Position numbers and translations under genes: made by a program
Shown: positions 1,030-63,814 of the stretch, in pieces
Layout of the letters: every line of letters starts with the position of its first letter
Numbering within the stretch: the first letter of the stretch is position 1
DNA from: Eurosta solidaginis
Taxonomy: Eukaryota > Arthropoda > Insecta > Diptera > Tephritidae
Assembly: GCF_040869045.1 (NCBI RefSeq)
Contig: NC_090322.1
Coordinates: forward strand, 179,752,672 to 179,816,671
Reading direction: 5' to 3'
Length of the DNA stretch: 64,000 bases
The notes under the pieces: model-generated
What the model was told of the DNA's origin: nothing
The model's database searches: none
What the model saw: the letters and a program-made list of their open reading frames with translations, nothing else

Positions 1030-1440
1030 TGCCCGCACGTACTTTAAAAGAGTTCATAGGTATACTCACTGCATCATTTTCGGCACGGCGATTATACCCT
1101 TTTTGGACAAATCGTCATCTCATAAGTTGCCTTCAATAACACTGTAACCAGGTATTGGCGCGGTTATAGTCCGATTTCGTTCATTTTAAATAGCGATCTG
1201 AGATGAGTGCCCAGGAAGTAACATACCATATTCTATTAAGTTACCTCAAAATTTACTCAAGTTATCGTGTTTACGACAGACGGACGGACGGACATAGCTA
1301 AATGAATTTCTTTTTTCACCAGGATCCTTTTGATATATAGAAGGCTATATATCTCGATTAGTTTATGCCGTTACGGATTACCATTATGCGAACAAAATTA
1401 ATATACTCTCTGAGCTCTGCACAGATGAGTATAAAAAAGT
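1030..1440 (-). repeat. G150 interspersed repeat, 5' part, minus orientation
   Basis: Read on the minus strand, this has the hallmark 5' region of the family I label G150: an ACTCAT/GAGTATA start motif, a GTCCGTCCGTCCGTC-type run (plus strand 1273-1288), then TTAACACGATAACTTGAG-like sequence and a degenerate CACGCCC site. It is non-coding. It lies head to head with the plus-oriented B-type copy that follows. Confidence 0.7.
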
Positions 1441-2096
1441 TCTATCCAACCAGCCTGTCAAGTCCACATAAATAAACCCGTTTAAAAATTAGAACAATGG
1501 AACGGTAACCATTTTTTCGATATCGAAAAATTCTAAAAATAGAAAAAAAAAAATACGATTGGTCTATACCAATGATGAATAAAGTAAAGACACTCGATAT
1601 GTAGGTTGACTTTATAATGGGGAACAAAAACTTATTATAAATACGCTTACTAGTAATTTACAAAATGCCCACTTTTAAAAATATTGCTATCAAAATTTCG
1701 AAAGATGGAAAAGGTGCTAAAATTCAACACCAAAGACAGATAAAGTGATGTAACTTGATACGTCTAGTAAATTTAGGACAAGAAACAGAAATTTTATAAA
1801 ATTTTGGAAAATGAGCGTAGCACCGCCCACATTTAGAAGAGAAAATTTAAAAGTTTTACAAGCCGTAAATCAAGAGCCATTGAAGGTATCGTGTTGAACT
1901 TTGGTACGGTGGTTGTATTTGCTATTATATATGCGTTTATTGAAAATTTACAAAATCGGTTGGCGACGACGTCCACTTTTAAGGTATTCGGCATCGAAAT
2001 TTAGAAAATGTATGCTATAATTCAATATGCGGTATATAGCCAAATTACACTAATATTTCACGTCAGTAATTATGTATGTGCTGTAGCAAAGTACTA

Positions 2097-2485
2097 TGTC
2101 GAATGTTGACATCACTATCCTGTTAGCAAATAATCACAACCACAAAAACGGAAAGCAGCCAGAATTATATACAAGCCAACGAAGAACATTCCATATACAC
2201 ATATGTAGTCATCAGCTAAGAGACGAAGTTCTTACGCACTCATACACACCTATACAGTTAAGTAACCAAGTATGCGATACAACTGTTCCATCTTCCTGAA
2301 AAGTCTGACCTTAGAAGAAATATGCGAACGAAGCAACAGAGAGTATAAAAGCAGCGAAAGCTGAGGAATAACTAATCAATTTGATTTAAACACGCTATTA
2401 GTTGTGAAGAATAATTGTGAAGTACTACTCCCAAAGTAGTCTAAATGTATGTATAATTATCAGGAATCTCTCAGAATTAGTTATA
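2097..2485 (+). mobile_element. Solo LTR (copy a)
   Basis: The start TGTCGAATGTTGACATCACT is a decayed form of the family start TGT-nnCGAATATTAGCA. The interior shares with the copies at 3999 and 52668 the run GTTAGCAAATAATCAC, a GAGAGTATAAAAGCAGC promoter block (about 2340-2355) and ACTCCCAAAGTAGTCTAAAT. It ends in a degenerate AGAATTAGTTATA. No internal retrotransposon region follows, so it is a solo LTR, and it lacks the last ~80 bp of the longer copies. I could not find a convincing 4-bp target duplication, consistent with age. Confidence 0.65.
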
Positions 2486-2854
2486 TAGTACGAAAATAAA
2501 AAACTCTTGAAAATTGACGTAGTGCCATCCCTTTTCACTCTATAATACGATTTATGCCAAAAATTTACCAATTCTAACAAAAATTTATATAAGGATTGTT
2601 TTGAAGCCTAAAACGTATTAGAAATTTAATAAACCTTTGGAACTTGGGCATGGCACAAACCATACTAAGAAGTCTTCACAAAGGTTTTATTATCAAAGTC
2701 AGTCAAAAATCGACCAAATTTAAAGAGATTTAAAACACTGATAACAGACAGCTGCGAACAGAAGATGATGTTTGCATATGCATAAGTAGTATGTGTCCGC
2801 TTTCATATTATTTGATTCTCTTGAGATTTCTCTTTAAATGTATTCTTAATATAT

Positions 2855-3591
2855 TGTTACGAATATTAGCAAAACTAAGGTGTGCTGCCGTCTCTAAGCC
2901 GATGCTAAGCAGTGACGTGAATGCACATCAATAATTCAATCATCATGTATCTACATAAACGAAATAATAACTGCGTCTACATATATGTACCATGTACGTA
3001 TACGAGCAGCGGAGAGTCAATTCACAAATACATGCATATATCTGAGATGCTCCTAAATGTAGGCAATTATAATTGTGGAAGTGTCGCTCACACATGCAAG
3101 TATGGGGTATGAGAGAAGCTATAAAATTGTGCAATTCTAGTTACAGCTGAGAAGTTTGAGAGCTACTGGACTAGTAGATTCTGGAAGCGCCTAGAAGATG
3201 TATAAAATTGTGCAATTGTAGTTACAGCTGAGAAGTTTGAGAGCTCATGGACAATGCTAGTAGATTCTAGAAGATGCGAACGAGGAAACCAGAGAGTATA
3301 AAAGGCCGCAGATGTAGAGGCGCTGTAATTCAGTTTGATTTGAGTTGTCAAGCAGTTACGACTAAGACGATATCTAGCGAGCAATAGCAGTATTATTTTG
3401 AATAGTGGAGTTTCATTTGAGCTATCAGTTTGGTTATTAAGCTATTCGTTGCACAGTTTGAGTGTTATTGTGAAGTATTTTAATAAAGGCCATTTTTTCC
3501 ATTATTCAATATTGGAGTTATTTATTCAACAGTTTAGCGATACGAACCTAGCAAAAGGGCAAATAAGAGGATTTGCAGCAAATTCGTTACA
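2855..3591 (+). mobile_element. Solo LTR (copy b), long subtype with an internal 81-bp duplication
   Basis: The element begins TGTTACGAAT and ends with the exact inverse ATTCGTTACA, the expected TG...CA form. It is flanked by a 4-bp ATAT duplication (2851-2854 and 3592-3595). Inside are a TATA box (TATAAAAG, 3297-3304) and a polyadenylation signal (AATAAA, 3482-3487), so transcription would run on the plus strand. Two copies of an 81-bp unit lie at 3120-3200 and 3201-3275, which accounts for part of its extra length over the 470-550 bp relatives. No gag or pol sequence adjoins it. A Gypsy-like origin is likely from the 4-bp ATAT target but is an inference. Confidence 0.85.
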
Positions 3592-3998
3592 ATATATTTG
3601 AAACCACACGCTGGGTATATAATATCGCTTACGCCCAAACTTAGATTTCTTTACTTGTTTTTGTTGTTGTTCTTTTTTTTTTTTTGTTTAGGTTGACACT
3701 AACTTGTAATCTTCTTCCTATTTAAAATATAACTATATATATATATATATATGTGGAGTTGCTCCAAACGAAATTTCACTAACCGAGCATTTGTTTCTTT
3801 GTATTTCAGCTCCTTGTACAAAATTTGCAATCCACGCACTAATGATGCGATTATATTAAAATTCGGCGCACAACTTATTAAAATAAGCCAAACCATGCGA
3901 ATGTGCTAAACCATAATAAGGGATAGGAAGTAAACTCGTAATAAAGAGTTTTTACTTTGTGTGTGGTTAATACTTAAGGTTGCTTGATCAAACGGTAT
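3592..3998. other. G150 3' end, T run and AT microsatellite; no gene
   Basis: After the end of the interrupted G150 copy (to 3665) there is a long T run near 3670-3690 and an (AT)n stretch at 3733-3752. The rest is AT-rich and unrecognised. No coding potential is apparent. Confidence 0.6.
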
Positions 3999-4879: not shown

Positions 4880-5353
4880 TATTATACCCAGCTGTACTTG
4901 TACACAGGGTATTATAATTTTAATTGGATAACGGTTGGTTGTACAGCTACCTATAAAAGGAATCGAGATAGATATAAACTTCCATATACCAAAATAATCA
5001 GTAACGATTGAGCCATGTCCGTCCGTCCATCTGTCTGTCCGTTAACACGATAACTTTAGTAAATATTGTGATATCGTCACCAAATTTGGTACACGAGCTT
5101 ATCTGGACACAGAATAGGTTGGAATTGCAAATGAGCGAAATCGGATGATAAGATAAAATCGCCCACTTTTTATATATATAACATTTTGGAAAACACAAAA
5201 AACCTGATTATTTAGTAAATAATACACGTAGAATGTTGAAATTTGACGTGTGGACTGATATTGAGACTCTTAATAAAAATTTTAAAAAATTTATTTAAAG
5301 TGGGCGTAGCACCGCCTACTTGTGACGAAATCAATTTTACAAATATTATTAAT

Positions 5354-5686
5354 AAGATCGCGGGTTAAAATCGAGCTCAAGGCCAGCAATAATTTTTTAT
5401 CAATATTATTGTTATGATACATTTTTTTTTAATTGAAAAAATTTTTAAATTAGAGTAGAAGAAATAAAAAATTTAGACAACTGCCAAAGCTCGTTGTATA
5501 GATCCATAGCAGTTCTAAAAAAAAAAAAAAAATTTTCTTTCTTTTAATCTAATTTAAAAATTTTTTCAATTAAGAAAAAATGTATCATAACAATAATAAT
5601 GATAAAAAATTATTTTGAGGTCTTGAGCTCGATTCGAACCCGTGATCTTACAAATCAGTAGGCCGATATAACAACAAAAAATTGTT
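5354..5686. mobile_element. Foldback (palindromic) element with tRNA-like box B (F1)
   Basis: Two arms of about 110-145 bp face each other around a spacer of roughly 80 bp. Left arm: AAGATCGCGGGTTAAAATCG, then GAGCTCAAGGCC, then TTGTTATGATACATTTTTT. The right arm repeats this on the other strand with a longer outer end containing GTTGTTATATCGGCC. The right arm holds GGGTTCGAATCGAG on the minus strand, a good match to the tRNA B box (GGTTCGANNCC). A perfect 12-bp duplication AATATTATTAAT flanks it (5342-5353 and 5687-5698), and removing it restores the G150 sequence. The left arm lacks about 35 bp of the outer end. It has no coding capacity; mobility would have to be supplied in trans. Confidence 0.75.
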
Positions 5687-5976
5687 AATATTATTAATCA
5701 TAAATCAAAAACCTAAGGTAACAAAATTCAGCAGAGAGATTGACCTTTACTATAAGGAATGCTTTGAAGAAAAATTAACGAAATCGGTTAAGGACGCCGC
5801 TCACTTTAATATACAAGATTTTTAAACGGGTCGTTGACGAATAAAATAAGCTATATATTTGCAAAAAATAGCATGGATTTTCAATTCAGTGGATTTATAA
5901 CAACAAATAGGAAAAACTTCAAGTTTTAAAAAATGTACGTGGCACCGCCCCTTTTATGACTAAGCAATTTTCTATG

Positions 5977-6339
5977 GCCACCGTGGTGTGATGGTAGCGT
6001 GCTCCGCCTATCACACCGTATGCCCTGGCTTCAACTCCCGGGCAAAGCAACATCAAAATTTTAGAAATAAGATTTGTCAATTAGAAGAAAATTTTTCTAA
6101 GCGGGGTCGCCCCTCGGCAGTGTCTGGCAAGCGCTCCGATTGTATTTCTGCCATGAAAAGCTCTCAGTGAAAACTCTTCTGCCTTGCAGATGCCGTTCGG
6201 AGTCGGCATAAAAAATGTAGGTCCCGTCCGGCCAATTTGTAGGGAAAAATCAAGAGGAGCACGACGCAAATTGGAAGAGAAGCTCGGCCTTAGATCTCTT
6301 CGGAGGTTATCGCGCCTTACATTTATTTTTTTTTTATTT
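5977..6339 (+). mobile_element. tRNA-Gly-like SINE (S-Gly copy 1)
   Basis: The head GGTGTGATGGTAGCGTGCTC (box A), with CGCCTATCAC and GGCTTCAACTCCCGGG (box B, one base off), follows the order and spacing of a tRNA-Gly(GCC)-like gene. A tRNA-unrelated body of about 270 bp follows: GCGGGGTCGCCCCTCGGC, GCCATGAAAAGCTCTCAG, GAGGAGCACGACGCAAATTG. It ends in a T-rich tail. An 11-bp duplication AATTTTCTATG (5966-5976 and 6340-6350) marks the insertion into G150. Short frames inside are not genes. Transcription would be by RNA polymerase III from the internal boxes; the retrotransposition partner LINE is unknown. Confidence 0.9.
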
Positions 6340-6490
6340 AATTTTCTATGTTTCGTGAGCCATAACTCGAAGAAAAATTAGTTCAGCCTTGTAACACTAT
6401 TAAGCACACAAAACAAAAAACAACAGCATTTCAAGTATACAGCTGGGTATGTATTGTTCGGTTTCACCCGAAGTTAGACTTCCTTACTTG

Positions 6491-7046
6491 CCTTATTTTG
6501 TTTTTTCTTTTATAAAAGTAATTTCATTTTACCTACATACATATCTACCAGAAACTTGTATTATTGTTCTTGCTCATGATTTTCCAATTTTCGGCAAATT
6601 AAAATTCAGTCAGCATTCTGTGTTCATAAAACAACAAATACACACAATAACAGATTAACTTGCCTAGTATGCTGAACTTGATTGATCTATTCTGTTTTGT
6701 TGCTTTTATTGTTAGTTTTGCATTTTAACGTGGCTGCATTTTTATTTAATTCATATTCGAAAGACTTTTTTGGTTTGTTTGCTTATTGTTGATTTTGATG
6801 AAATTTCGTAAATTAGACAAGTTCCAAACAATGTCAAGCAATGACCAATCTATTTATATATATTTTTCTTTTAATCGCTACCTAAATGAAGCGATGCGGA
6901 AAATCAGTGCAAATAATATATAGCTAACTTTTTGATGAGTACACAAAAACGTATGTTTGATCAAAATTAAAAGAAGCAATCAAATTGTTGCAGATTTAAG
7001 TTAAGTTAGATTCATTTATGACTAAAATTGTACCAGCGTAGTTTCC
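6491..7046. other. AT-rich stretch, no gene recognised
   Basis: Runs of TTTTATT and CTTTTATT dominate. No product, RNA gene or repeat of this window was recognised. Confidence 0.5.
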
Positions 7047-8374
7047 ACACAGAGTTTATTAACTTTGGCAATATAACGGTTGATCGTAATGGAACAAACG
7101 AATCAAGATAAATATGGACTTCCAGATATATAAATGATCAGTATGTAAAAAGGAATTGATCGAGCCATGTCCGTTCGTCCGTCCGTCTGTCCGTTAACAC
7201 GATAACTTGAGTAAATATTGAGATATCTTCACCAAATTTGGTACACGAGCTTATCTGGACCCAGAATAGATTGGTATGGAAAATGAGCGAAACTAGATGA
7301 TAACCACGCCCACTTTTTATATATATAACCTTTTTGAAAACACAAAAACCTGATTCTTTAGTTAATAATACACCTAGAAAGTTGAAATTTGATGTGGGGA
7401 CTGATATTGAGACTGGTGATAAAAAAAAAATTTAAATAGGCGTGGTACCTACCGCCCACTTTTGATAAAATCAATTTTACAAACATCAATAACCATAAAT
7501 AAAAACCGTTAGACCTATGTAACAAAATTTAGCGGAGAGGTTGTTTTTTACTATGAGGAATGCACCGAAGAAAAATTAACGAAATCGGTAAAGGACCAAG
7601 CCCACTTTTATATAAAAGTTTTTTAAAAGGATCGTGAACGAATAAAATAAGCTATAACTTTGCGAAAAAGGGTTTTTTTTATTAATGGTATTTCTTTTCC
7701 AAAATAAAACTATAACCAGAAATAGAAAAAAATTCAAATATGGGCGTGGTACGGACCCTTTTATGACTAAGTCGTAACTCGAAATAAATGAACGAATCGT
7801 TATCAAATTGGGTACACGTATTTTCCTTGTAGCAGAAAGTATTTCTAGAAAAAGCGGACGAAATCGATTTAGAACCGGCGCCTACATACAACACATCAAA
7901 GGCTTTTCAAGGGGGCGTAGACGAATATAATAAGCTATGCCTTTGCGAAAAAGGGCTTAATAACAATGGTATTTTACTTTGTAAATAGAATTATAACAAA
8001 ATGTTAGAAAATATTAAAATTTTTGAAGGTGGGCGTGGCACTGCCCCTTTTTGACTAAGCAATTTACTATGTTTTGGGAGCCATAACTCGAAGAAAATGA
8101 ACGGATAGTAATGAGATTGGGTACACATATTTTCCTTATAGTTGAAAATATTTCTAGTAAAAATTAACGGGATCTGTTAAATAGCACTACCACTTTTATA
8201 TAAAATACGTATAAAAGGGTCGCAGACTAGAATAATAAGCTATATCTTAGCGAAAAATTGTTTTGTATCAATGATATTTCACTAGCAAGTTTTATTGTAA
8301 AAGGAAACTGGGAGACACCTTTTTTTCATGGTCGGTGCCGCACCCATATTTCAGTCAAGCATTACGCAACATTG
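7047..8374 (+). repeat. G150 interspersed repeat, A type, 3' truncated
   Basis: Hallmarks in order: AACGGTTGATCG, GTCCGTCCGTCTGTCCG (7175-7192), ACGATAACTTGAGTAAATAT, then GC-box sites near 7314 (-), 7438 (+), 7596 (-), 7742 (+), 7875 (-), 8031 (+), 8183 (-) and 8330 (+). Distances are about 124, 158, 146, 133, 156, 152 and 147 bp, and the strand alternates throughout. The usual 3' end (TGAGTATATAATG...TTACTTG) is missing; a SINE fragment abuts it at 8374. Confidence 0.8.
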
Positions 8375-10127: not shown

Positions 10128-10212
10128 TCTGAAATGAACTATACAATTGAATCTCATGGTAAGTGTATAATTTTCTGTTACGCACGAGCTTAGACACCCT
10201 TACTTGTTTTTT
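10128..10212 (+). repeat. G150 3'-end fragment
   Basis: TTATCTGAAATGAACT, then AATTGAATCTCATGG, GTATAAT, TTACGCACGAGCTTAGACAC and TTACTTGTTTTT match the 3' terminus of the A-type repeat at 36.3-36.4 kb. The body is absent. Confidence 0.75.
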
Positions 10213-20965: not shown

Positions 20966-20993
20966 GGTTTAGATACTATAACGGTTTAGATAC

Positions 20994-25057: not shown

Positions 25058-25058
25058 T

Positions 25059-25414
25059 GGCGTCCGCCGTGGTGTGATGGTAGCGTGCTCCGCCTACCAC
25101 ACCGAAGACCCTGGGTTCACGCCCCGGGAAAAGCACCATCAAAAAACAAGTTTTTTCATTTAGAAGAAAATTTTTCTAAGCGGGGTCGCCCTTCGGCAGT
25201 GTTTGGCAAGCACTCCGAGTGTATTTCTGCCATGAAAAGCTCTCAGTGAAAACTCATCTGCCTTGCAGATGCCGCTCGGAGTCGGCATAAAACAAGAAGG
25301 TCCGATCCCGCCAATTTGTAGGCAAAAAGAAATAGGAGCACGACGCAAATTGGAAGAGAAGCTCGGCCTTAGATCTCTTCGAGGTTATGCCGCCTTACAT
25401 TTTTTTTTTTTTTT
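25059..25414 (+). mobile_element. tRNA-Gly-like SINE (S-Gly copy 3)
   Basis: Head: GCCGTGGTGTGATGGTAGCG, then TGCTCCGCCTACCACACC and CCTGGGTTCACGCCCCGGG; the box B-like GGTTCACGCCC is near consensus. The body matches copies 1 and 4, and the tail is a T run (25400-25414). AATTCAGATAA upstream and AATTCAGAAAA downstream may be an imperfect target duplication, which would add about 15 bp to the 5' side. Confidence 0.85.
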
Positions 25415-28785: not shown

Positions 28786-30756
28786 ATAAAATAAATATAT
28801 ATTTTTTACCACAAATTTTGAATTCATTCATTCCCAAATCTGATTTCTGCGCTGGCAGACCTGCCGACTTTTACTAAAGCTCAAGTGTAGAAGTTAGGCT
28901 TTTTATACCCAAGCTTACGAAAAGTTCTCTAGTGATATTGAAATATAGCAAGCATAAATTATCTAGAATCTTGCAATAGAGCGCAATTTGAAAAGTTGGT
29001 AAAAGTTCATCATCATGTTATATCCGAAACTAATACAATTTTGGCCACCAATTCCCTGCGTTTTCTCAGCTTCGAATAAAACGATAACATTTGTCTTTTT
29101 TCGGCACCTTACAAAGAGTTTAACGGCAGTGGTAAAATAAATTTGGTTTCAAAACTGAAATCTTCTTACAAAAACCATCTATGATTTCGTTTAATAAGTC
29201 AGATCTATATCTCAACACTATCACAATTCTGTAAGGAAAGTAAAATGAAACAGCCAGTTTTAAAATTCTTGGTATTTGCTTTGTAATATGGCTTAGAACT
29301 AATATCCAAATACAATAACTGTTTATTAAACTCAACCCTCTGAATGATCAAAACTCAGACCATAAACTAACCTTAAATCAAGTTTCAAAACATTTAAAAG
29401 GCCAAGACCGTAACGCACAATAAAAAAAAAAAAAAAAAAAAACAAAAAAATTAAAAACATCCCTTCCCTTGAAAATCACAACACTCATTATGAGATTTCA
29501 CACAACCCCCTTCATTTGCAATCAACAGCCAAGTAAACCAACCCCAACACAATATTGTTATCGACATTTTTTTTAGAATAATACAAGAGGTGTGCGGTCG
29601 TTCTGCTATTGATTTGCTTTTGTTGTGCTGCTGTTTGCTGCGTGTTACGCTGTAACTACATGTACATATTTAGGAATGCACAAATTCTTGAACTCCACAA
29701 GACGACACAGCCGGCGATGGTCCACGCGCAGACAATTGACACAGTGACACATACTCGCTCGGTACTACAGCGACGATGGCGCCAATGGCAACAGCGCGAG
29801 AACCTAGAATAATAAGAATATAAACGAACTAAACAGCCGATGAATAAATGTTTCCCACACTCAAAGCGAACACCTTTATAATTTTGGATCTACTGTGTAC
29901 GAGAATGCAAGCTGGTAAGCAAAGGAATTCCGATGAGAGAATAGGAATGTGAGTATGTGAAATGCGCATAAACGTTACAGCTACATTGTCATTTTTATCT
30001 CAGCTGAGAGCTAAGTAAACACACACGCCTTTTTTACAAACTATCTGTATATAATATGAAAATTGAGCATAAATATGCGCTCTCCCAGCATCAAAATGAG
30101 CACACAAAAAGAAAGTGGGCCAACTTCGCCTGGATTGTGTGATGTGTTTTGCATGAAGGGTGGGTGCGTTTGTTAAATCTCCATTAATTAAGGTAAGAAG
30201 TCTACAAAATGTCACGCAGCATTGTTATCTGTCAAAGGTTTTGCAAGAGAGCAAAGCATACTGGAGAGAGCGAATTTAGTAAGAAAGAGTTTAAACAAAA
30301 AAAAAAAAAAACAACAAAAGTGTGTTACACAGAGGAACAGCTGATAATTCTTAGAAAAGTGGGAAATATAATGACATAAATACACTGGGAGATAGCTCTG
30401 AAACTTTTTTTTAACTGAATTGTATAGACAGCATCTTCACACGAAAATTGTTAGGGGTATTCGACTGTGGCAAATATCGGAAAAACTTTGTGGCGATTTG
30501 GACTTGGCCTAAACTTGGAGGTATGAGTCTACAAGAGACACGTAACTGTATATATATAAGACTCTTGCCAGACAGTGAATTTCCATAGATAGGCCAACAA
30601 GTTGGCGAATGGAAGGTGCACCTCTCGATGTGTACAGAGTAGACATCCTAACTTGTTTGCGAGAATGGGAAAGGCGCTATGACTTGTTTAAAAGCAAGGG
30701 AGGAAGACAGACGTAGAATCAAGTGAGGAGCAAAAAAATCTGCATATTTATGTTTT
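28786..30756. other. No gene recognised; possibly unique sequence
   Basis: An A run lies at 29421-29440 and another at 30298-30311. Around 29600-29820 the sequence is less AT-rich, with a 67-codon frame of no recognised similarity. GAGAGAGC-type phrases occur near 30245-30275. No repeat family of the window is present, so this may be host unique DNA. Confidence 0.4.
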
Positions 30757-30760
30757 ATAT

Positions 30761-31311
30761 TATAACGAATTTACTTGCAATTCCCCTTATTTGCAATCTT
30801 CTGCTAACGTTCGAATCACTGAACTGTTGAATAAATAAATCCACTATTCAATAATGCAAAATGGCCTTTATTAAAGTACTTCACAATAACACTGAAACTG
30901 ATTTTCAAAATAATACTGCTATTGCTCACTAGATAGCGTCTTAAATCCAACTGATTATCGCGCCTCTAAAGTTGCTGCATTTTATACTCTCTGATTTCCT
31001 CGTTCGCATCTTCTAGGCGCTTCCATTTCCAGAATCTACTAGTTGGCCATCAGCTATCAAATTTCTCAGCTGTAACTACCGATGCACGATTTTATAGCTT
31101 CTCTCATTGCATACTTTCGGGAGTATCTCAGATATATGCATGTGGTTGTGCGTTGCTTCTCCGCTGTGTGTACGTACATATGTGTAGACATAATGATTGA
31201 TTCGTTTATGTAGATACAAGTGACTGTCTGCTTTATTGTTGTTCTGACTTCATTTACTTAGCATCAGACTAGGGATGTGAGTATCACTTAGTGTCACTCA
31301 TATTCGCCACA
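30761..31311 (-). mobile_element. Solo LTR (copy e), long subtype
   Basis: On the plus strand it runs TATAACGAATTTACTTGC ... CATATTCGCCACA, flanked by ATAT (30757-30760 and 31312-31315). The inverted TATA block is TTTATACTCTCTG at 30981 and the inverted polyadenylation signal TTTATT near 30870. The interior is close to copy d over CCTCGTTCGCATCTTCTAGG and neighbouring sequence. No internal region remains. Confidence 0.9.
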
Positions 31312-34086: not shown

Positions 34087-34358
34087 ATTATACTCAGCAT
34101 GCTTTGCACAGAGAGTAATTAACTTTGATTGGATAACGGTTGGTTTTACAGGTATAAAGGAATCGAGATAGAAATAGACTTCCATATATCAAAATCATCA
34201 GTATCGAAAAAAATTTGATTGAGCCATGTCCGTCCGTCTGTCCGTTAACACGATAACTTGAGTAAATATTGAGATATCTTCAGCTTATCTGGACCCAGAA
34301 TAGATTGGTATTGAAAATGAGCGAAATCGGATGATAAGCACGCCCACTTTTTATATAT

Positions 34359-34884
34359 TGTAACGAATTTACTGCAAATCCTCTTATTTGCAACCTTCGG
34401 CTAAGTTCGAATCACTAAACTGTTGAATAAATAACTTCAATATGTAATAATGCAAAATGGCCTGCAGTAAATTACTTCACAATAAATAACTCTGCTATTG
34501 CCCGACAGATTGCGTGCTTAATCAAAACTGACTGATAGCTTCAATGAAACTAAACTCTTGCGCCTCTACTGTCGCCTTTTTATACTGTTTGATTTCTTCG
34601 TTGCATACTTCTAGACTTTTCCAATCCAGAACTTACTAGTTAGTTATCAGCTACAAAATCACCAGCCACAACTATGTTTATTGTTTCTCATAATACTTGC
34701 ACAAATTATTACCCTCTCTTATGAGCACCTTAGATAAAATATATGCATGTGTTTGTGCGTTGCTTCTCCGCTGCTCGTATGGATATGTGTGTAGACATAA
34801 TGATTGAATTATTGATGTGCATACAAATCACTGTTTAGCATCGGCTTAGAGATGGTAATACCCCTGTTGCTAATATTCGTAACA
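34359..34884 (-). mobile_element. Solo LTR (copy g), nested in G150
   Basis: The plus strand runs TGTAACGAATTTACTGC ... GCTAATATTCGTAACA with ATAT on both sides (34355-34358 and 34885-34888). Excision in silico restores the TTTTTATATATAACATTTTG of the host repeat. The inverted TATA block lies near 34578-34585. It is close to copies b, d and e but lacks part of their middle. Confidence 0.92.
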
Positions 34885-35231
34885 ATATATAACATTTTGG
34901 AAAACACAAAAAACCTGATTATTTAGTAAATAATACACCTAGAATGTTGAAATTTGACGTGTGGACTGATATTGAGTCTCTTGATAAAAATTTGAAAACA
35001 AAATTTAAAAATGGGCGTGGCACCACCCACTTGAGTCAAAATCAATTTTAAAAATATTATTAATCATAAATCAAAAATCGTTAAACCTATCGTAACAAAA
35101 TTCGGCAGAGACGTTGCCTTCGCTGTAGTGCTTGGAAGAAAAATTAACAAAATCGGTTAAGGACCACGCCCACTTTTATATACAAGATTTTTAAAAGGAG
35201 CGTGGACGAATAAAATAAGCTATATATTTGC

Positions 35232-35592
35232 GGCCACGGTGGTGTGATGGTAGCGTGCTCCGCCTATCACGCCGTATGTCCTGGGTTCAACTCCCGGGCA
35301 AAGCAACATCAAAATTTTAGAAATAAGATTTTTCAATTAGAAGAAAATTTTTCTAAGCGGGGTCGCCCCTCGGCAGTGTCTGGCAAGCGCTCCGATTGTA
35401 TTTCTGCCATGAAAAGCTCTCAGTGAAAACTCATCTGCCTTGCAGATGCCTTTCGGAGCCGGCATAAAACATGTAGGTCCCGTCCGGCCAATTTGTAGGG
35501 AAAAATCAAGAGGAGCACGACGCAAATTGGAAGAGAAGCTCGGCCTTAGATCTCTTCGGAGGTTATCGCGCCTTACATTTTTTTTTTTTTTT
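35232..35592 (+). mobile_element. tRNA-Gly-like SINE (S-Gly copy 4), nested in G150
   Basis: A complete copy: head GGTGTGATGGTAGCGTGCTC, box B within GGGTTCAACTCCCGGG, body identical in layout to copy 1, then a T run (35577-35592). An 11-bp duplication TATATATTTGC (35221-35231 and 35593-35603) flanks it. It is very similar to copy 1 at 5977, so both are probably recent. Confidence 0.92.
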
Positions 35593-36536
35593 TATATATT
35601 TGCAAAAAAGGGCTTTATATCAATGGTATTTCATTTCCGAAGTGGATTTATAACAATAAATAGGAAAAACTTCAGATTTAAAAAAAAAGGCGTGGCACCG
35701 CCCCTTTTATAACTAAGTAATTTTCTATGTTTCGGGAGCCATAACTTGAAGAAAAATTAACATACCATAACAAAATTGGGTACACATATTTTCGTTATAG
35801 CAGGAAATAATTTAGAATAGAATAGAAATAGAAAAAATGTACGAGGTCAGCTAAAGACCACGCCCACTTTTATATAAAAGATTAAAGGATCGTAGACGAA
35901 AATAATAAGCTATATCTTAGCAAAACAGAGCTTTGTATCAATAGAATATTACTTTCTAAATTGTGTTATAACATTAAATTGGAAAAAACTAAAATTTTTG
36001 AAAATGGGTGTGGTACCGCCCCTTTTATGACTACGCAATTTTAAATGTTTCGGGAGTCATAACTCGAAAAAAAATTAACATATCGTAATGAAATTGTATA
36101 CACATATTTGCCTTATAGCAAAAAAATATTTCTAGTAAAATTGGACGGGATCGATTAAAGATCACGGCAACTTATATAAAAGAAGTTTAAGGGGGTCGTA
36201 TACTAGAATAATAAGCTATAACTTAGCAAAAAATAGTTTTGAGTCAATGATATTTCACTTATCAAGTTTTACTGTAAGAGGAAATGGGGAGACATTTTTC
36301 TTTTAAACGGGCGGTGCCACGTGTTATGTAGAAAAGGTATTTATCTGAAATGAAATGTGCAATTGAAGCTCACGCTGAGTATATAATGTGCGGTTACGCC
36401 CGAACATAGATACCTTTACTTGTTTTTTTTTTTTTTTTTTTTTGTACAAAAAAGTAATCCGCAGTTGTCTTTTTATTAGAAGATAAAAGTGTATTAATCA
36501 TTGTAAAGAAAATAAATTATTTTGTAAACAATTTTG

Positions 36537-36722: not shown

Positions 36723-37077
36723 GTTTATGTTTGGTTGGTTTCAGCAGTAGATACCATTTTCACACAGGGATGCTTACACAACCATGTACTGGGATAAACA
36801 ACAGCAGCAGCAACACTTGCGTATTTTAATTTCATGGTATGCGTGGATACTCGGGTTGAATTTATTAAACTGCAAGCAATATGTTGCCACCGGCAAATGC
36901 CTTTTCATGAGGACATACATATGTATTTAACCCACGCATTCAAAAGGGTGTATGAACAAATATCGGTTTTATTGTATATGACTTTTCCCTCACTGGTTGA
37001 AAATGAAAGGATATTATTCCCATTTCCTTTTCCTTTCTCCTGACTTTATTTTCTTTTTTTATTTTCTCTTCCTTTAT

Positions 37078-37356
37078 TGTATTTTATTTTATTTTGTTTT
37101 ATTTTATTTTATTTTATTTTATTTTATTTTATATTTTCTGTTTTATGTTATTTTATTTTATTTTTTTTATTTTTACATTTCTTTTATTTGGTTTTATTTT
37201 ATTTCATTTTATTTTCGTTTATTTTTTATTTTATTTTATATTATTTTAATTTATTTTACTTTCTTTTATTTTTTTTTATTTTATTTTATTTTGTTTTATT
37301 TTATTTTCGTTTATCAAATTTTATTTTATTTTTTTTAATTTTATTTTATATTGAGT
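37078..37356. repeat. (TTTTA)n pentanucleotide microsatellite
   Basis: About 280 bp of TTTTA units with point changes. It lies in the same relative place as the TAAAA array of the inverted copy at 43262-43946. Confidence 0.95.
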
Positions 37357-37625
37357 CGTGCTCCTTTTTAGTTTTCCTACGAATCAGCTAGACGGGACCT
37401 ACGTTTTGTTTTACGACTCCGAACGGAATCTGTAAGGCAAATGAGTTTTAAGGGAGACTGTTTGCCAAGTCACTTTTAAGGGCGACCCCGATTTTAAAAT
37501 CTGTTTTCTAATTGAGAAAATTTTGTTCTAATTTTTCGATGTTACTTTGCCTGGTGTTGAAACCAGGATACTCGGTGTAGTAGGCTGAGGTTGGCTCATT
37601 TCTAACGCTTTGCACCAGACCAGTG
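37357..37625 (-). mobile_element. Diverged S-Gly-like SINE segment (copy 5), minus orientation
   Basis: The minus strand shows a SINE order: a head remnant CTACTACACCGAGTATCCTG, GGTTTCAACACCAGGCAAAG (box B-like), AACATCGAAAAATTAG, CGGGGTCGCCC, GCCTTACAGATTCCGTTCGG, GTCGTAAAACAAAACG and AGGAGCACGACTC. It differs at many sites from the 5.9- and 35.2-kb copies, and its 3' end runs into the TAAAA array instead of a T tail. It is an older subfamily or a related SINE. Confidence 0.7.
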
Positions 37626-37726: not shown

Positions 37727-37951
37727 GAGTTAGGTCGTTGCCTAGGATGACTTTACCAAGTGATCGATAAATGAGGCCACGGCCTTGGCTGGAGAAAGAT
37801 TGTGGAGGCTTGCGTTGCCCGGATAAACAAAATGCGGCCTTCGAGTTAGGTCGTTGCCTAGGATGACTTTACCAAATGATCGATAAATGAGGCCATGGCC
37901 TTGGCTGGAAAAAGATTGGGGAGGCTTGCGTTGCCCGGATAAACAAAATGA
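37727..37951. repeat. 116-bp tandem duplication inside the composite element
   Basis: The unit GAGTTAGGTCGTTGCCTAGG ... GATAAACAAAATG occurs at 37727-37842 and again at 37843-37951 with about seven substitutions. The inverted partner at 42.8 kb has only one copy of this block. Confidence 0.9.
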
Positions 37952-38705: not shown

Positions 38706-40520
38706 TTATACTCAGTTGAGCAGAGCTCACAGAGTATACTAAGTTTGATTGGATAACGGTTGGTTGTACATATATAAAGGAATCGAGATAGATATAGACT
38801 TCCATATATCAAAATAATCAGGATCGAAAAAAAATTTGATTGAGGCATGTCCGTCCGTCCGTCCGTTAACACGATAACTTGAGTAAATTTTGAGGTATCT
38901 TGATGAAATTTGATATGTAGGTTCCTGAGCACTCATCTCAGATTGCTATTTAAAATGAACGATATCGGACTATAACCACGCCCACTTTTTCGATATCGAA
39001 AATTTCGAAAAACCGAAAAAGTGCGATAATTCATTACAAAAGACCGATAAAGCGACGAAACTTGGTAGATGAGTTGAACTTATGACGCAAAATAGAAAAT
39101 TAGTAAAATCTTGGACAATGGGCGTGGCACCGCCCACTTTTAAAAGAAGGTAATTTAAAACTTTTGCAAGCTGTAATTTGGCAGTCGTTGAAGATATCAT
39201 GACGAAATATGGCAGGAACGTTACTCTTATTACTATATGTACGCTTAATAAAAATTAACAAAATCGGAGAAGGACCACGCCCACTTTTAAAAAAAAATTT
39301 TTTTAAAGTAAAATTTTAACAAAAAATTTAATATCTTTACAGTATATAAGTAAATTATGTCAAGATTCAACCCCAGTAATGATATGGTGCAACAAAATAC
39401 AAAAATAAAAGAAAATTTAAAAATGGGCGTGGCTCCGCCCTTTTTCATTTAATTTGTCTAGGATACTTTTAACGCCATAATTCGAACAAAAATTAACCAA
39501 TCCTTTTGAAATTTGGTAGGGGCATAGATTTTATGGCGTTAACTGTTTTCTGTGAAAATGGGCGAAATCGGTTGATGTCACGCCCAGTTTTTATACACAG
39601 TCGTCCGTCTGTCCTTCCGCATGGCCGTTAACACGATAACTTGAGCAAAAATCGATATATCTTTACTAAACTCAGTTCACGTACTTATCTGAGCTCACTT
39701 TATCTTGGCATGAAAAATGAACGAAATCCGACTATGACCACGCCCACTTTTTCGATATCGAAAATTACGAAAAATGAAAAAAATGCCATAATTCTATACC
39801 AAATACGAAAAAAGGGATGAAATATGGTAAGGTAATTGGATTGCTTTATTGACGCGAAATATAACTTTAGAAAAAAATTTATAAAATGGTTGTGACACCT
39901 ACCATATTAAGTAGAAGAAAATGAAAAAGTTCTGCAGGGCGAAATAAAAAACCCTTAAAATCTTGGCAGGTATTACATATATAAATAAATTAGCGGTATC
40001 CAACAGATGATGTTCTGGGTCACCCTGGTCCACATTTTGGCCGATATCTGGAAAACGCCTTCACATATATAACTACCACCACTCCCTTTTAAAACTCTCA
40101 TTAATACCTTTAATTTGATACCCATATTGCACAAACGAATTCTAGAGTCACCCCTGATCCACCTTTATGGCGATATTTCGAAAAGGCGAACACCTATAGA
40201 ACGAAGGCCCACTCCCTTTTAAAAATACTCATTAACACCTTTCATTTGATACCCATATCGTACAAACGCATTCTAGAGTCAACCCTGATCCACCTTTATG
40301 GCTATATCCCTAAATGGCGTCCACCTAAAGAACTATGGCCCACTCCCTCATAAAATACTCTTTAATGCCTTTCATTTGATACACATGTCATACAAACACA
40401 TTCCAGGGTTTCCCTCGGTTCATTTTCCTACATGGTTATTTTCCCTTATGTTGTCACCATAGCTCTCAACTGAGTATGTAATGTTCCGTTACACCCGAAC
40501 TTAACCTTCCTTACTTGTTT
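38706..40520 (+). repeat. G150 interspersed repeat, B type, complete
   Basis: Start TATACTCAGTTGAGCAGAGC, ATTGGATAACGGTTGGTTG, GTCCGTCCGTCCGTTAAC. It has a second internal run GTCCGTCTGTCCTTCC (39602) with another CACGATAACTTGAG, so the 5' module is repeated. End: CTCAACTGAGTATGTAATG, CGTTACACCCGAACTTAACC, TTACTTGTTTTT. GC-box sites: 38976 (-), 39121 (+), 39275 (-), 39425 (+), 39578 (-), 39738 (-), 39898 (+, decayed). Gaps are 145, 154, 150, 153, 160 and 160 bp; the two adjacent minus sites mark the internal duplication. A 130-bp array (39985-40430) precedes the 3' end. It is non-coding. Confidence 0.85.
39985..40430 (+). repeat. 130-bp tandem array within the B-type G150
   Basis: About 3.4 units share TTTGATACCCATAT, ACAAACGCATTCTAGAGTCA, CCCTGATCCACCTTTATGGC, GATAT and GGCCCACTCCCTTTTAAAA. 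GATACCCA-type landmarks fall at 40117, 40248 and 40378, giving spacings of 131 and 130. It is absent from the A-type copies. Confidence 0.9.
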
Positions 40521-42959: not shown

Positions 42960-43262
42960 ATAAGTTGCACTGGTTTGGTGCAAAGCGGTAGGAATGAGCT
43001 AACCTCCGTGTACTACATCGAGGTTCCTGGGCTCAACACCAGGCAAAGTAACATCAAAAATTTGAACAAAGTGTTTTCAATTAGAAAACAGATTTTAAAA
43101 TCGGGGCGCCACTTAACAGTGACTTTGCAAACAGCGTATTTCTGCCACGTAAAGCTTCTCCCTTAAAACTCATTTGCCTTACAGATGCCGTTCGGAGTCG
43201 TAAAACAAAACGTAGGTCCCGTCTCGCTGATTCGCAGGAAAACTAAAAAGGAGCACGACTCA
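42960..43262 (+). mobile_element. Diverged S-Gly-like SINE segment (copy 6)
   Basis: Plus-strand order: CTCCGTGTACTACATCGAGG (decayed head), CTGGGCTCAACACCAGGC (box B-like), AACATCAAAAATTTG, a GGGGCGCCACTTAACAGTG region, TTTCTGCCACGTAAAGC, GCCTTACAGATGCCGTTCGG, AGGAGCACGACTC, then TAAAA units. It is the same subfamily as the segment at 37357-37625. Confidence 0.75.
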
Positions 43263-43943
43263 ATATAAAATAAAATTAGAAAAAAATAAAATAAAATTTG
43301 ATAGACTAAAATAAAATAAAATAAAATAAAATAAAGTAAAATAAAGTAAAATATTATAAAATAAAACAATACAATAAAATAAAATAAAATAAAATAAAAT
43401 AAAAGAAATGAAAAAATAAAAATAATATAAAATAAAACAAACCAAAAGAAATGAAAAAATAAAATAAAATGAAATAAAAAAATAAAATAAAATAAAATAA
43501 AATAAAATAAAATAAAATAAAATAAAATAAAATAAAATAAAATAAAATAAAATGAAATGAAATGAAATGAAATAAAATAAAAGAAAATAAAATAAAAAAA
43601 AAATAAATAAAAGAAATGAAAAAATAAAAATAATATAAAATAAAACAAACCAAAAGAAATGAAAAAATAAAATGAAATTAAAAAAATAAAATAAAATAAA
43701 ATAAAATAAAACAAAATAAAATAAAATGAAATAAAATAAAATAAAATAATATAAAATAAAATAAAATAAAATAAAATAAAATAAAATAAAATAACATAAA
43801 ATAAAATTGAATAAAATAAAATAAAACAAACCAAAAGAAATGAAAAAATAAAATAAAATAAAAAAATAAAATTAAAAAAATAAAATAAAATGAAATGAAA
43901 TAAAATAAAATAAAATAAAATAGAATAAAATAAGATAAAATAA
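43263..43943. repeat. (TAAAA)n microsatellite, about 680 bp
   Basis: A long array of TAAAA units with GAAAT, CAAAC and AAAAAT interruptions. A higher-order repeat is visible: ACAAACCAAAAGAAATGAAA recurs at about 43436, 43643 and 43826. It is the source of the long spurious minus-strand frames of Phe/Leu/Tyr/Ile. Confidence 0.95.
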
Positions 43944-49830: not shown

Positions 49831-50273
49831 TCTTTGCTTCGTCGCTGTACAATTTCGTTTTATTTCCTTTCTGCCTGTTTTCGTTTATTTTGATCTCTCT
49901 TTTTTCTTGCCTTCTTCTTTTAACTCTAATGGTATCATTCACTTTTCTTGTATCTCTACCTGTGGCACTATTTTCCTTCTACTTTTATCTTTCCCGCTTT
50001 CCCTCTTCTAACTCTACTCCAACACTCCCAATCTATGACCCCACAGCGATACCGTGTGGAATAATTTGAAAGTTTAATCTATAAAAAAATATTTCGAATA
50101 GATCAGCGACCAGTCCACTTCCAGAAAAAGGTGTTAATTAGTTTCCGAAATCAAACGCGAAAAAATAATATGAGGAGCACCAAATCAAAATGCCATAATA
50201 ACAATCGAACACTTGTGAGGAAATTGAGAAAACACAAGATATTGTTAATAAGACAATGGTTTAATTAAAATCA
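49831..50273. other. Pyrimidine-rich stretch, no gene recognised
   Basis: TTCTTTT/CTCTTCT-rich until about 50030, then AT-rich. Nothing identified. Confidence 0.45.
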
Positions 50274-51740
50274 AAAACAAGTAAGGAAGTCCAAGTTCGG
50301 GTGAAACCGAAAATTACATACCCAAATGTACACATGAAATCAACCGAAATAGTGGTCAATTTAACCGAAATTTCTGTCAATTTTTATCCATCGCAACAAG
50401 ATGTTGAATCAACTGCGCACAAATCGTTGATTCGTAATTGACCGTAACAAAAAACAAAAAAAAAGTTGATGCGACAGCTTTGTACGAAAGTACCTATGTT
50501 GCGGCATTTCCAAGGCAGATGAGTTTTCACTGAGATCTTTTCATGGCAGAAATACACTCGGAGTGCTTGCCGAACACCGCCGAGGGACGACCCCGCTTAG
50601 GAAAATTTTCTTCTAATTGAAAAACCTTATTTCTAAAATTTTTATATTGCTTTGCCCGGAGTGTGAACCCAGGGTCTTCGGTGTGGTAGGCGGAGCACGC
50701 TACCATCACACCACGGCGGCCGCCATATACATACGTAAATATGTGCATACATATAGTACACAGCACACATAAGTACAAAGTCGAGAGAGCAGTGAGCGTA
50801 AAACTCTGTTTGAAATTTGCTCATGTATTGACTGTTTATCGCTGTTGAAATGACCAGTGAGATCAGTTGTGTTAACAAAAAAATCAGTTAGATTGATTAG
50901 GAATCTATCAATTTTACAGAATTGTGTTAACTTAAGAGCGACAATTTTTCTTCTGTTGAAATGACTAAACTAATTTGTTCGTTAAGTCAAGAACAACAGA
51001 ATCGATTTGTTGATTTTACTAGCACCATTTATTTCAGTATATTCTGAACTAATTTTTCTTCGAGGTTTGTCTCCCGAATAATAGAAAATTGCTTAGTCAT
51101 AAAAGGGGCGGTGCCGCGTCCATTTTTATTAAATTTGAAGTGTTTTCTATTTATTGTTATAAAACCTCTTGGGAAATGAAATACCATTGAAATAAAGCTC
51201 TTTTTTGCAAAGATATAGCTTATTTTTTCGTCCACTACCCTTTTAAAAATCGTTTATATAAAAGTGGGCGTGGTCTTTAACCGATTTCGTTAATTTTTCT
51301 TAAAAACATTCTGCCGAATTTTGATACGATAGGTTTAACGATTTTTGATTTATGATTAATAATATTTTTAAAATTGATTTTATCACAAAAAAGCGGTGCC
51401 GCGCCCATTTAAACATTTTTTTTTCAAATTTTTATCAAGAGTCTCAATATCAGTCGACGCGTCAATTTTTCAACATTCTATGTGTATTATTTACTAAATA
51501 ATCAGGTTTTTTGTGTTTCCCAAAATGTTATATATATAAAAAATGGGCGTGGTTATCATACGATGTCGATAGATATCTCAATATTTACTCAAGTTATCGT
51601 GTAAACGGACAGACGGACGGACACGGCACAATCAAATTTTTTTTTTCGATACTGATGATTTTGATATAAGGAAGTCTATATCTATCTCGATTCCTTTATA
51701 CCTTTACAACCAGCCGTTACCCAATTAAAGTTATAATGCA
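50274..51740 (-). repeat. G150 interspersed repeat, minus orientation, interrupted
   Basis: The 3' end, inverted: AAAAACAAGTAAGGAAGTCC, AGTTCGGGTGAAACCGAAA (50274-50320). The 5' two thirds, inverted, lie at 51045-51740: GGGGCGGTGCCGCGTCC (51106), GTGGGCGTGGTC (51263), GGTGCCGCGCCCAT (51393), ATGGGCGTGGTTATC (51543), GACAGACGGACGGACA (51608). Spacings of these sites are again near 130-155 bp. A SINE (50485-50723) and about 450 bp of unmatched sequence lie between the two parts. Confidence 0.75.
50485..50723 (-). mobile_element. tRNA-Gly-like SINE (S-Gly copy 7), 3'-truncated
   Basis: The minus strand reads GCCGCCGTGGTGTGATGGTA, GCGTGCTCCGCCTACCACAC, CCTGGGTTCACACTCCGGGC, then the body to CTCATCTGCCTTGGAAATGC. 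The remainder (the end of the body and tail) is deleted or truncated. Its head is among the best preserved. Confidence 0.85.
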
Positions 51741-61679: not shown

Positions 61680-61905
61680 CTACCCAGACACACAAAGGCT
61701 ATGCACTTATTACTACAGAGTTAATCTGCTTATTATTACGTATAAGGTTCTATTTAACGTACTTCACGAAAGACTGAAGCCCAAAATCAAGCACCTTGTT
61801 GGACGTTGTCAGTCGGCTTCAGACTCAACAGCGTACTATCGATCAGATCTTCATTATACGCCAAATCCTGGATAAGACGCATGATAAGAGAATCGATTAG
61901 TAGCG
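61680..61905 (+). pseudogene. RTE-like reverse transcriptase fragment
   Basis: The frame from 61615 reads NLLIITYKVLFNVLHERLKP, KIKHLVGRCQS, then after a frameshift TIDQIFIIRQILDKTHDKRI and a stop. This matches early reverse transcriptase blocks of RTE-type and related LINEs, where C.NYRGI.LL...YKV....L..RL.P ... CGFRPG.ST.DQIF.LRQ.LEK is typical. The usual GFRPG region is scrambled by the shift. It is cut off at 61905, where the G150 repeat begins. Its relation to the minus-strand RTE-like remnants at 15, 19 and 27 kb is likely but unproven. Confidence 0.8.
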
Positions 61906-62862
61906 ACTTCCCTATATCAAAACCATCAGTATCGAAAAACCATATTCGTCCGTCCGTCCGTTTGTCCGCCCGTTAACACGATAACAAATAAAATGAGATA
62001 TCTTCACCGAGTTCGGTACAAGGGCTTATCTTTAGGCAGAATAGATAGCTTTGGAAATGAGTGAAATTGAATGACAACCACGCCCACTTTTTATATATAT
62101 AAAATTTGGAAAACACAAAAAACCTGATTATTTAGTGAATAATACACCTAAAATGATTTTAAGATTTTTGATAAAAATATTAAAACATTTTTGAAAATGG
62201 GTGTGGCACCGCCCACTTGTGGTAAAATCAATCTTACAAATAATGTTTATCATAAATGAAAAACCGTTTAAACTGGCATAACAAAATTCAGCAGATGGCT
62301 TGCCTCCACCATAAAAAATGTTGGAAAGAAAAATTTACGAAATTGGCTAAGGACCACGCCCACTTTTATATAAAAGATTTTTTAAGTGGTCCTAGATGAA
62401 TTAAATAAGCGTTTTCTCTGCAAAGAGCTTTATATTGATTATGTTTCTTTTCCTAAGTGAAATTATAACCAGAAAGAGGAGAAAATTTAAATTTTTTACA
62501 ACTAAGCAAATTTCTATGTTTCGGGGGTCGTAAATCGAATAAAAATTACCGGATCGTGATAAGATTGGGTACACAGAAAAAATGGACGAGATCTGTTACG
62601 GAGCGCCCACATTTATATGAAAAACTTTAAAAAGGGTCGTGGAATAGAATAAGAAGCCATATCTTAGCGAAAAATAGTATTGTATCAATGATATTTCACT
62701 CATCAAGTTTTATTGTAAGAGAAAATTGGGAGAATTTTTTTTTAAATGGGTGGTGCCACATGTTATGCAAAAAAGTAATTTATCTGATATGAACTGTACA
62801 ATTGAAGATCGCGCTGAGTATATAATGTTCGGTTACACCCTAACCTAGACACCCTTACTTTT
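61906..62862 (+). repeat. G150 interspersed repeat, A type, lacking its first ~50 bp
   Basis: Begins at CGACTTCCCTATATCAAAAC, then GTCCGTCCGTCCGTTTGTCC, CACGATAAC, GC-box sites at 62078 (-), 62199 (+), 62354 (-) and further decayed ones. Ends CGCGCTGAGTATATAATGTT, CGGTTACACCCTAACCTAGA, CTTACTTTTTAG. One plus-strand GC-box module between about 62460 and 62530 is deleted. Confidence 0.8.
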
Positions 62863-63814
62863 TAGTCTGAACTTTTTACTTTCAAACCTTCCCGATACTG
62901 AAGCTTTGTTTTAAAACAGTACGTCGCTAGTATGTAAGCTATTTCAACAAAGAATTCCAGGTTACAAATGAACTTCGCCATAATAAGACAAGCGAACAAC
63001 AAATCTCACCCATCCTAACACTCTTTCCCAGTATTACAAAACTTCATATAGAGCTTGAACTTCAAACATAATTATATTAGCAGTGTTGGCTATAAAAAAA
63101 GTTACGATTTTGCAGATCATCATGTATTTAAGTTATATGACTAGCGATTACCAACCCTCCTACAAGACGCGTAAAAATATGAACAACCCAAGTTAATCTG
63201 CTGCAATCAGCGCTGGATCAAAAACAACTGAACGCAACTTTAGCAAGCTTGTTTTCCCAACGAATTATGTTGCTCATACGCAATGGCGTACCCAATGCTT
63301 ATGCTCTGCATTGGAAATAAATATGTACATACATATGCATGTAAACAGATATGAAGTAAAAATTTGTAGTAAAACGCCTAACAGCATGCAAACTGACACA
63401 CATAAACACGTAAATATGTATGTATTTATAATGTGCTCTGCTCTGCTTTATTGCTTCCTTTGGAATAGACTTAATACGATTATAGCGAAAGTTTTTGCTG
63501 GGAGTTGCTGCCGCGTAACCGTGCGAAGGCGAAATGGGACGTACTTGAAATAATTTTATAATTTTATTTTTTTTATTTTATAATTTATACAAACCCTATG
63601 TTTCTTGAACGATAAAAGTTAAATACAGATACGCTGTAAAAGCAAGGCATGAGTACGAAATACTCGTGTGAGCTCGATGTGCAAACATACTGGAGTACGT
63701 CTAGAAAAGTAATGTTTTCAAATGATTTAGAGCTCTCCAGGTATTGAATCTGAACCACAACAGAGGTAACTTTACCATTACCAAATAATTCTGAACTTTA
63801 AGAGAAAAGATTTG
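62863..63814. other. No gene recognised
   Basis: AT-rich with ACATACATATGCATG-like runs near 63325-63345. An 80-codon frame (63311-63553) has no recognised similarity. Confidence 0.45.

What the first reader, a model, noticed from the sequence alone, without database searches (positions are those of the whole stretch)
34087..36432. A 150-bp lattice of strand-alternating GC boxes inside a non-coding repeat family
In this copy, after subtracting a solo LTR and a SINE with their target duplications, GGGCGTGG and CCACGCCC alternate at spacings of 144, 151, 152, 170, 148, 157 and 146 bp. Independent copies keep the pattern: 7047-8374 (124-158 bp), 38706-40520 (145-160 bp), 1500-3665, 4880-6490 (about 145 bp) and 50274-51740. 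The sequence between the sites is much less conserved than the sites. The repeat is therefore built from roughly 300-bp palindromic double units, or spacing and motif are maintained. The motif resembles KLF/Sp-type zinc-finger sites and the spacing is close to one nucleosome core; both readings are inference.
Basis: partly seen in the sequence, partly recalled or inferred. Interest (0 to 1): 0.8.

Follow-up and report, generated by a model that had tools for sequence, protein, structure and literature searches.

The report
Fly rolling-circle transposon with internal repeats
The evenly spaced GC boxes sit in the internal tandem repeats of a common kind of non-coding fly transposon; the boxes and their spacing look preserved in the lineages that kept jumping, but not in the dead copies.

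Summary
The lattice is real: 17 exact GGGCGTGG/CCACGCCC sites against about 0.3 expected, 16 of them inside copies or fragments of one repeat family. The repeat is a DINE-1-like non-autonomous rolling-circle element (HINE type): 13-bp subterminal inverted repeats matching exactly in 2 of 3 copies tested (10 bp in the third), a GTCY microsatellite, and central direct repeats at 304-318 bp. Each unit carries one site per strand, so alternation comes with the unit. The two half-units are not inverted copies of each other.

Among the five A-type copies the motif decays like other columns (12/120 versus 271/2589 mismatches). Between the A-type consensus and the divergent copy E, cores are kept (62/68 columns) and interiors are not (124/227). 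Three core-to-core distances barely differ (145/144, 155/155, 152/150) at about 40% substitution, closer than a rough indel model predicts. This suggests selection on cores and spacing in active lineages, from one subfamily pair. Published DINE-TR1 elements have ~150-bp repeats with a 30-bp conserved segment. KLF/Sp binding is untested; nucleosome positioning gained no support. The genome search did not complete.

The parts
34087..36432 (+). Copy A of the repeat (A-type), holding a solo LTR and a SINE
   Evidence: BLAST against other copies, sequence
34087..34358 (+). Block A of copy A: 5' subterminal inverted repeat, GTCY microsatellite, first minus core at 34338
34359..34884 (.). Insert called a solo LTR (TG...CA, ATAT-type flanking duplication); not part of the element
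   Evidence: uninterrupted copies, junction letters
35013..35231 (+). Central unit 1, first part: plus core 35013, minus core 35164
35232..35592 (+). SINE insertion; not part of the element
   Evidence: uninterrupted copies and related insertions, 11-bp flanking duplication
35688..36005 (+). Central unit 2: plus core 35688 (1 mismatch), minus core 35858
36006..36321 (+). Central unit 3: plus core 36006 (1 mismatch), degenerate minus core about 36162, closing inverted core 36305-36321
36371..36432 (+). Block B: 3' subterminal inverted repeat, short GC-rich inverted repeat, TTACTTG end followed by a T run
7027..8374 (+). Copy B (A-type); minus 7304 and 7596, plus 7438, 7742, 8031; later minus core 8184
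50272..51740 (-). Copy C (A-type); sites 51545, 51399, 51266, 51114; SINE at 50503-50733; 3' part of the central region replaced by unrelated sequence
61884..62863 (+). Copy D (A-type); minus 62078, plus 62199, minus 62354; second plus core lost
4881..6490 (+). Copy F (A-type), with inserts; plus 5302, minus 5795, plus 5935
38706..40520 (+). Copy E (divergent subfamily); minus 38976, plus 39120, minus 39275, plus 39425, minus 39578, minus 39738, weak plus 39888
1157..3665 (.). Copy G (nearer to E): block A inverted at 1157-1437, plus core 1813, minus core 1967, LTR-related insert, 3' end at 3607-3665

Best explanation
The repeat is a non-autonomous rolling-circle transposon of the DINE-1/mini-me (HINE) kind in a fly genome. 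The lattice lies in its central tandem repeats: a unit of about 300 bp carries one plus core and one minus core about 150 bp apart, and block A ends in a further minus core, so repeating the unit lays out alternating sites (shown from sequence). After insertion, copies decay without regard to the motif (shown for five copies). Between two subfamilies, the cores and their spacing changed much less than the sequence between them (shown for one consensus-copy pair; partly for a third sequence). The most likely reason is that the cores are cis-acting docking sites that helped the element to mobilise or stay accessible in the germ line, bound by a host zinc-finger protein or by the element's machinery (inferred; partner unknown). 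My odds: about 0.93 for the element class, about 0.45 for the docking function.
For: Matching subterminal repeats of different sequence in copies E and F (13 bp each) and 10 bp in A; GTCY run and central direct repeats; the published DINE-1 plan (passages) and an INE-1 primer sharing GCCATGTCCGTC. No stop-to-stop ORF of 120 aa or more in any of the seven copies. Within A-type: 12/120 motif versus 271/2589 other mismatches. Between A consensus and E: motif columns 24/24, cores 62/68 versus interiors 124/227; all 33 fully identical 8-column windows of 467 lie at cores. Distances 145/144, 155/155, 152/150; joint probability 0.0004 or less at the full empirical indel rate, 0.006-0.008 at a quarter of it.
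Against: One pair of subfamilies from one window; E is a single copy. Core limits were drawn after seeing the data, so the Fisher P values are optimistic, and the alignment is anchored by the cores. Against copy G the contrast is weaker (cores 52/68, interiors 125/227, P 0.0018) and its motif letters match only 12/16. In E the cores at 39578 and 39738 break alternation. In E adjacent unit interiors show no similarity (P 0.27 and 0.82), so tandem origin of the E units rests on the cores alone. The 3' hairpin was found as expected in only 2 of 7 ends folded. No binding partner or autonomous element was found.
Confidence: 0.55

Rival explanations
1. By-product of tandem duplication only: the ancestral unit happened to hold two GC-rich inverted motifs; alternation and spacing are inherited and nothing is selected.
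For: Units are direct repeats; motif not conserved beyond neighbours within the A-type subfamily; alternation fails in E.
Against: Cores kept and distances nearly equal between A consensus and E at about 40% interior divergence; within E, cores of successive sites still resemble each other (38 bp at 82%, 48 bp at 77%) while interiors do not.
Confidence: 0.3
2. Strand pairing: because the sites alternate, a single-stranded rolling-circle intermediate folds each plus core onto a neighbouring minus core, and this folding is what is maintained.
For: Predicted folds of the A consensus and E are more stable than dinucleotide shuffles (z -3.4, -3.7; -2.7, -4.2, 60 shuffles each); core-core stems appear in 4 of 6 predicted folds.
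Against: Copy G shows no excess stability (z 0.3, 0.4); with DNA energies copy A and E show no core-core stem. No compensatory changes could be tested because the motif is identical in A consensus and E; copy C carries changed plus cores (GGGCGCGG) beside unchanged minus cores.
Confidence: 0.1
3. Nucleosome-scale array: factor sites phased at one nucleosome core.
For: Spacing near 147 bp.
Against: No 10-bp dinucleotide periodicity in 3 of 3 sequences; the fly nucleosome repeat is longer than 150 bp (recalled).
Confidence: 0.04
4. Foldback-type element (as Tetris in D. virilis) with inverted arms of tandem repeats.
For: Internal tandem repeats and inverted motifs.
Against: No long inverted arms within the element: its longest own inverted pair in copy A is 26 nt at 73%; the ends follow the DINE-1 plan.
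Confidence: 0.01

Closest known systems
DINE-1 / INE-1 / mini-me elements and HINEs (non-autonomous Helentrons); passages of PMC2374699, PMC4067079, PMC3630058 seen
   Same: Subterminal inverted repeats of 13 bp, GTCY microsatellite in block A, central repeats of 50-500 bp, no ORF, T-rich insertion sites
   Different: Published account says central repeats do not share homology among Drosophila species; here cores are shared between two subfamilies. The 3' hairpin is weak here
DINE-TR1 with its ~150-bp central tandem repeats (154TR); Dias et al. 2015 not held, known from passages of PMC9957191 and PMC6922343
   Same: Central repeats of about 150 bp homologous across species; a 30-bp conserved segment for which a function was proposed; reported in Bactrocera tryoni
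   Different: Here the direct unit is about 300 bp with two inverted cores; sequence identity with 154TR could not be tested
Caenorhabditis Helitrons carrying heat-shock elements (PMC6927752, passages seen)
   Same: Helitrons with several copies of a transcription-factor site in one element
   Different: Binding by HSF-1 was shown there; no factor is known here, and no regular spacing was reported in the passages seen

Membership tests
DINE-1-like HINE | Subterminal inverted repeats of about 13 bp, the 3' one internal | tested here: met
   13 bp exact in E and in F, 10 bp exact in A; 3 copies tested
DINE-1-like HINE | GTCY microsatellite in block A | tested here: met
   GTCCGTCCGTCTGTCC-type runs in copies A-F
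DINE-1-like HINE | Central repeats with units of 50-500 bp | tested here: met
   Direct repeats spaced 304-318 bp in copy A
DINE-1-like HINE | Partial inverted repeat beside the 5' subterminal repeat | tested here: inconclusive
   ATACTC...GAGTAT visible in E and similar in A and F; no significance test made
DINE-1-like HINE | Stem-loop (7-11-nt stems) downstream of the 3' subterminal repeat | tested here: inconclusive
   Expected stem, 5 bp, in 2 of 7 ends folded (C, F); A 3 bp; E, D, G other or weak; the slice folded for J missed the region
DINE-1-like HINE | Insertion between T-T without target duplication | tested here: inconclusive
   T runs flank most ends; no empty site available
DINE-1-like HINE | No coding capacity; moved by an autonomous Helentron with Rep/helicase/endonuclease | tested here: inconclusive
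   No ORF of 120 aa or more in seven copies; no partner found in the window; genome search unanswered
DINE-TR1 | Central repeats homologous to 154TR | not testable with these tools
   Sequence not held
Sp/KLF-bound element | Binding by a Sp/KLF protein | not testable with these tools
   Motif resemblance is recalled only
Foldback element | Long inverted terminal arms of tandem repeats | tested here: not met
   Longest own inverted pair in copy A 26 nt at 73%

The most novel reading that the evidence does not exclude
The cores form a spacing-constrained array of complementary protein-docking or strand-pairing sites at about 150-bp intervals that is needed in cis for rolling-circle mobilisation, and that was kept through the split of element subfamilies while most of the sequence between was replaced.
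Probability: 0.3. Interest if true: 0.65.

Novelty: new member of a known kind. Interest (0 to 1): 0.36.

Why it matters
As far as the passages read say, how non-autonomous Helentrons are recognised and why they keep central repeats is not settled. A conserved core with near-constant spacing, in elements whose interiors have otherwise turned over, is a concrete candidate cis-acting site that binding and mobilisation assays could test, and could bear on why such repeats later spread as satellites.

Tried and rejected
Palindromic 300-bp double unit: rejected. Coding origin of the length constraint: A-consensus/E substitutions show no codon phase (16/19/18, 18/18/17, 19/25/19). Nucleosome dinucleotide signal: none. 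Rfam (gathering threshold) and ARAGORN (bacterial code) scans of the window: no hits. Pfam on 8 of the 11 ORFs: one hit, RVT_1 at 44847-45335; the three left out were low-complexity ones (43163, 43260) and 40767. Relatives in other collections: three viral contigs patterns gave 0; genome contigs gave 0 and then 2 bacterial records that match only the GTCY run over 22-25 bp and were dropped as chance. Paper text: six sequence strings, one paper, an INE-1 primer. The plus-core conservation profile was set aside because two sites (A+2, A+3) were anchored two to three bases off; core widths rest. Copy G's first and third distances were set aside: its block A is inverted and the aligned GCCCACTTTT is four columns out of register, and the aligned part has no second plus core; only +1 to -1 (154) is clean.

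Full report
What was checked. GGGCGTGG or its complement occurs 17 times exactly in the window, against about 0.3 expected from a first-order Markov model. Sixteen of the 17 lie in copies or fragments of one repeat family; the exception is 58153. With up to one mismatch there are 47 sites against 9.7 expected, many outside the family. The spacings given for 34087-36432 are right to within two bases except the last, which ends on an inverted core and not on a GGGCGTGG box. The solo LTR (34359-34884) and SINE (35232-35592) are real insertions: other copies run through the same points without them (junction letters).

What the repeat is. Seven copies were compared: five of one subfamily (A-type: A 34087, B 7027, C 51740 on the minus strand, D 61884, F 4881) and two more divergent ones (E 38706, G 1157-3665; E and G differ at 101 of 313 positions, A consensus and G at 125 of 310). 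Block A carries a subterminal inverted repeat, a GTCY microsatellite and a first minus core. Central units follow as direct repeats at 304-318 bp. Block B holds the other subterminal repeat, a short GC-rich inverted repeat and, in 6 of 7 ends printed, TTACTTG (D has TTACTTT), usually followed by a T run. The subterminal repeats match over 13 bp in E, over 13 bp of a different sequence in F, and over 10 bp in A; matching ends that differ between copies suggest the two ends change together. This is the plan published for DINE-1, mini-me and HINE elements (passages of PMC2374699, PMC4067079 and PMC3630058). A primer for D. melanogaster INE-1 shares GCCATGTCCGTC (passage of PMC5624886). The 3' hairpin (2 of 7 ends with the expected 5-bp stem) and T-T insertion are inconclusive.

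Why the sites alternate. Each central unit of the A-type holds one plus and one minus core about 150 bp apart, so tandem repetition alternates them. The halves are not inverted copies of one another: seven inverted half-unit comparisons gave P between 0.09 and 0.95, while direct comparisons of adjacent A units gave 0.003 (P2/P3), 0.003 (M1/M2) and 0.017 (P1/P2) (300 shuffles, floor 0.003). One interior, P2, matched its own reverse complement (P 0.003), a local palindrome. In E adjacent interiors show no similarity (P 0.27, 0.82), yet successive cores do (38 bp at 82%, 48 bp at 77%). Alternation breaks in E at 39578/39738, where 329 aligned bases including part of block A recur at 72%.

Are the sites more conserved? 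Not among copies of one subfamily: 12 mismatches in 120 motif letters against 271 in 2589 other letters of the aligned part; for wider cores 27/340 against 102/1058 (P 0.39). Between the A-type consensus and E they are: motif columns 24 of 24; 62 of 68 core columns against 124 of 227 interior columns (P 8.6e-9), and against G 52 of 68 versus 125 of 227 (P 0.0018). All 33 fully identical eight-column windows, of 467, lie at the cores. Core limits (about 30 and 42 columns) were set after seeing the profiles and the alignment is anchored by the cores, so these P values are optimistic. The plus-half interiors of unit 1 and of unit 2 are still detectably homologous between A and E (P 0.003 each), the intervening half is not (P 0.63). 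This is the pattern expected if dead copies drift while the lineages that still move are constrained.

Is the spacing constrained? Three core-to-core distances are 145, 155 and 152 in the A consensus and 144, 155 and 150 in E. In G only one is clean, 154 for the second. A consensus and E differ at 169 of 428 central positions. The A-type copies, 6-15% diverged, range over 121-146, 133-160 and 140-152 by the alignment (D has lost its second plus core). Simulating indels at the rate and sizes seen in those copies (36 indels, 211 substitutions), the joint chance of three A-E differences this small is 0.0004 or less at full rate, 0.0003-0.0012 at half rate and 0.006-0.008 at a quarter rate. Substitutions show no codon phase, so a reading frame is not the reason. 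One pair of subfamilies is suggestive, not proof. A profile scan (trained on these same sites; null maxima 6.3 and 10.6 from six simulated sequences) found further cores at 5795, 5935, 8184, 39888 and 51114, at 140-154 bp from a neighbour, and two weak hits outside the copies (17818, 54496).

What it may do. Shown: the anatomy, the tandem unit, neutral decay of copies, and conservation of cores between two subfamilies. Inferred: the cores are cis-acting sites used in mobilisation or in keeping the element accessible, perhaps bound by a zinc-finger protein. Strand pairing in a single-stranded intermediate is possible: folds of the A consensus and E are more stable than shuffles but G's is not, and core-core stems appear in 4 of 6 folds. 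Nucleosome positioning has no support.

Relation to known systems. DINE-TR1 is the closest: its central repeats are about 150 bp and homologous across species, it is reported from Bactrocera tryoni, and the identity of a derived satellite (dmgsat-7) with these repeats is confined to the first 30 bp, for which a function has been proposed (PMC9957191 passages; PMC6922343 passages). I could not compare sequences because the original paper is not held. The host is probably a tephritid fly or a relative: a reverse-transcriptase fragment at 44847-45335 is 66% identical to a Eurosta solidaginis protein, the best of 120 listed (that this species is a tephritid is recalled). The element may therefore be a DINE-TR1 relative, which is why I file it as a new member of a known kind. 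The one search for sequence strings (open-licence PMC text only) found no paper printing the cores.

Noticed in passing
window 1157-1547: Copy G has its block A inverted relative to the rest of the element; both junctions match E at 38982, inside the first minus core, so one inversion breakpoint falls in the GC box.
   Followed up: partly
window 40079-40397: A 131-bp tandem repeat (2.5 copies, 85%) in the 3' part of copy E, with CCACTCCC where the lattice has CCACGCCC.
   Followed up: no
window 35232-35592, 5976-6344, 8371-8659, 25056-25414, 50503-50733, 51792-52094, 52087-52320 and partial matches at 37351-37589, 43025-43263: A SINE-like family of about 370 bp with several copies in 64 kb; that its head is tRNA-like is by eye, ARAGORN found no tRNA.
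   Followed up: no
window 20985-21533, 30753-31227, 2849-3597: Relatives of the solo LTR of copy A at 67-87% identity.
   Followed up: no
window 44847-45335: Reverse-transcriptase fragment (Pfam RVT_1, E 8e-18), 66% identical to a Eurosta solidaginis protein.
   Followed up: partly
window 43265-43943 and 37045-37349: Long pentanucleotide arrays, ATAAA (about 135 copies) and TTTAT (61 copies).
   Followed up: no
window 37727-37950: A 116-bp tandem duplication at 96% match.
   Followed up: no
window 8728-8957 and 10113-10216: Further fragments of the same family: a block A piece on the minus strand with an exact site at 8811, and a 3' end.
   Followed up: partly
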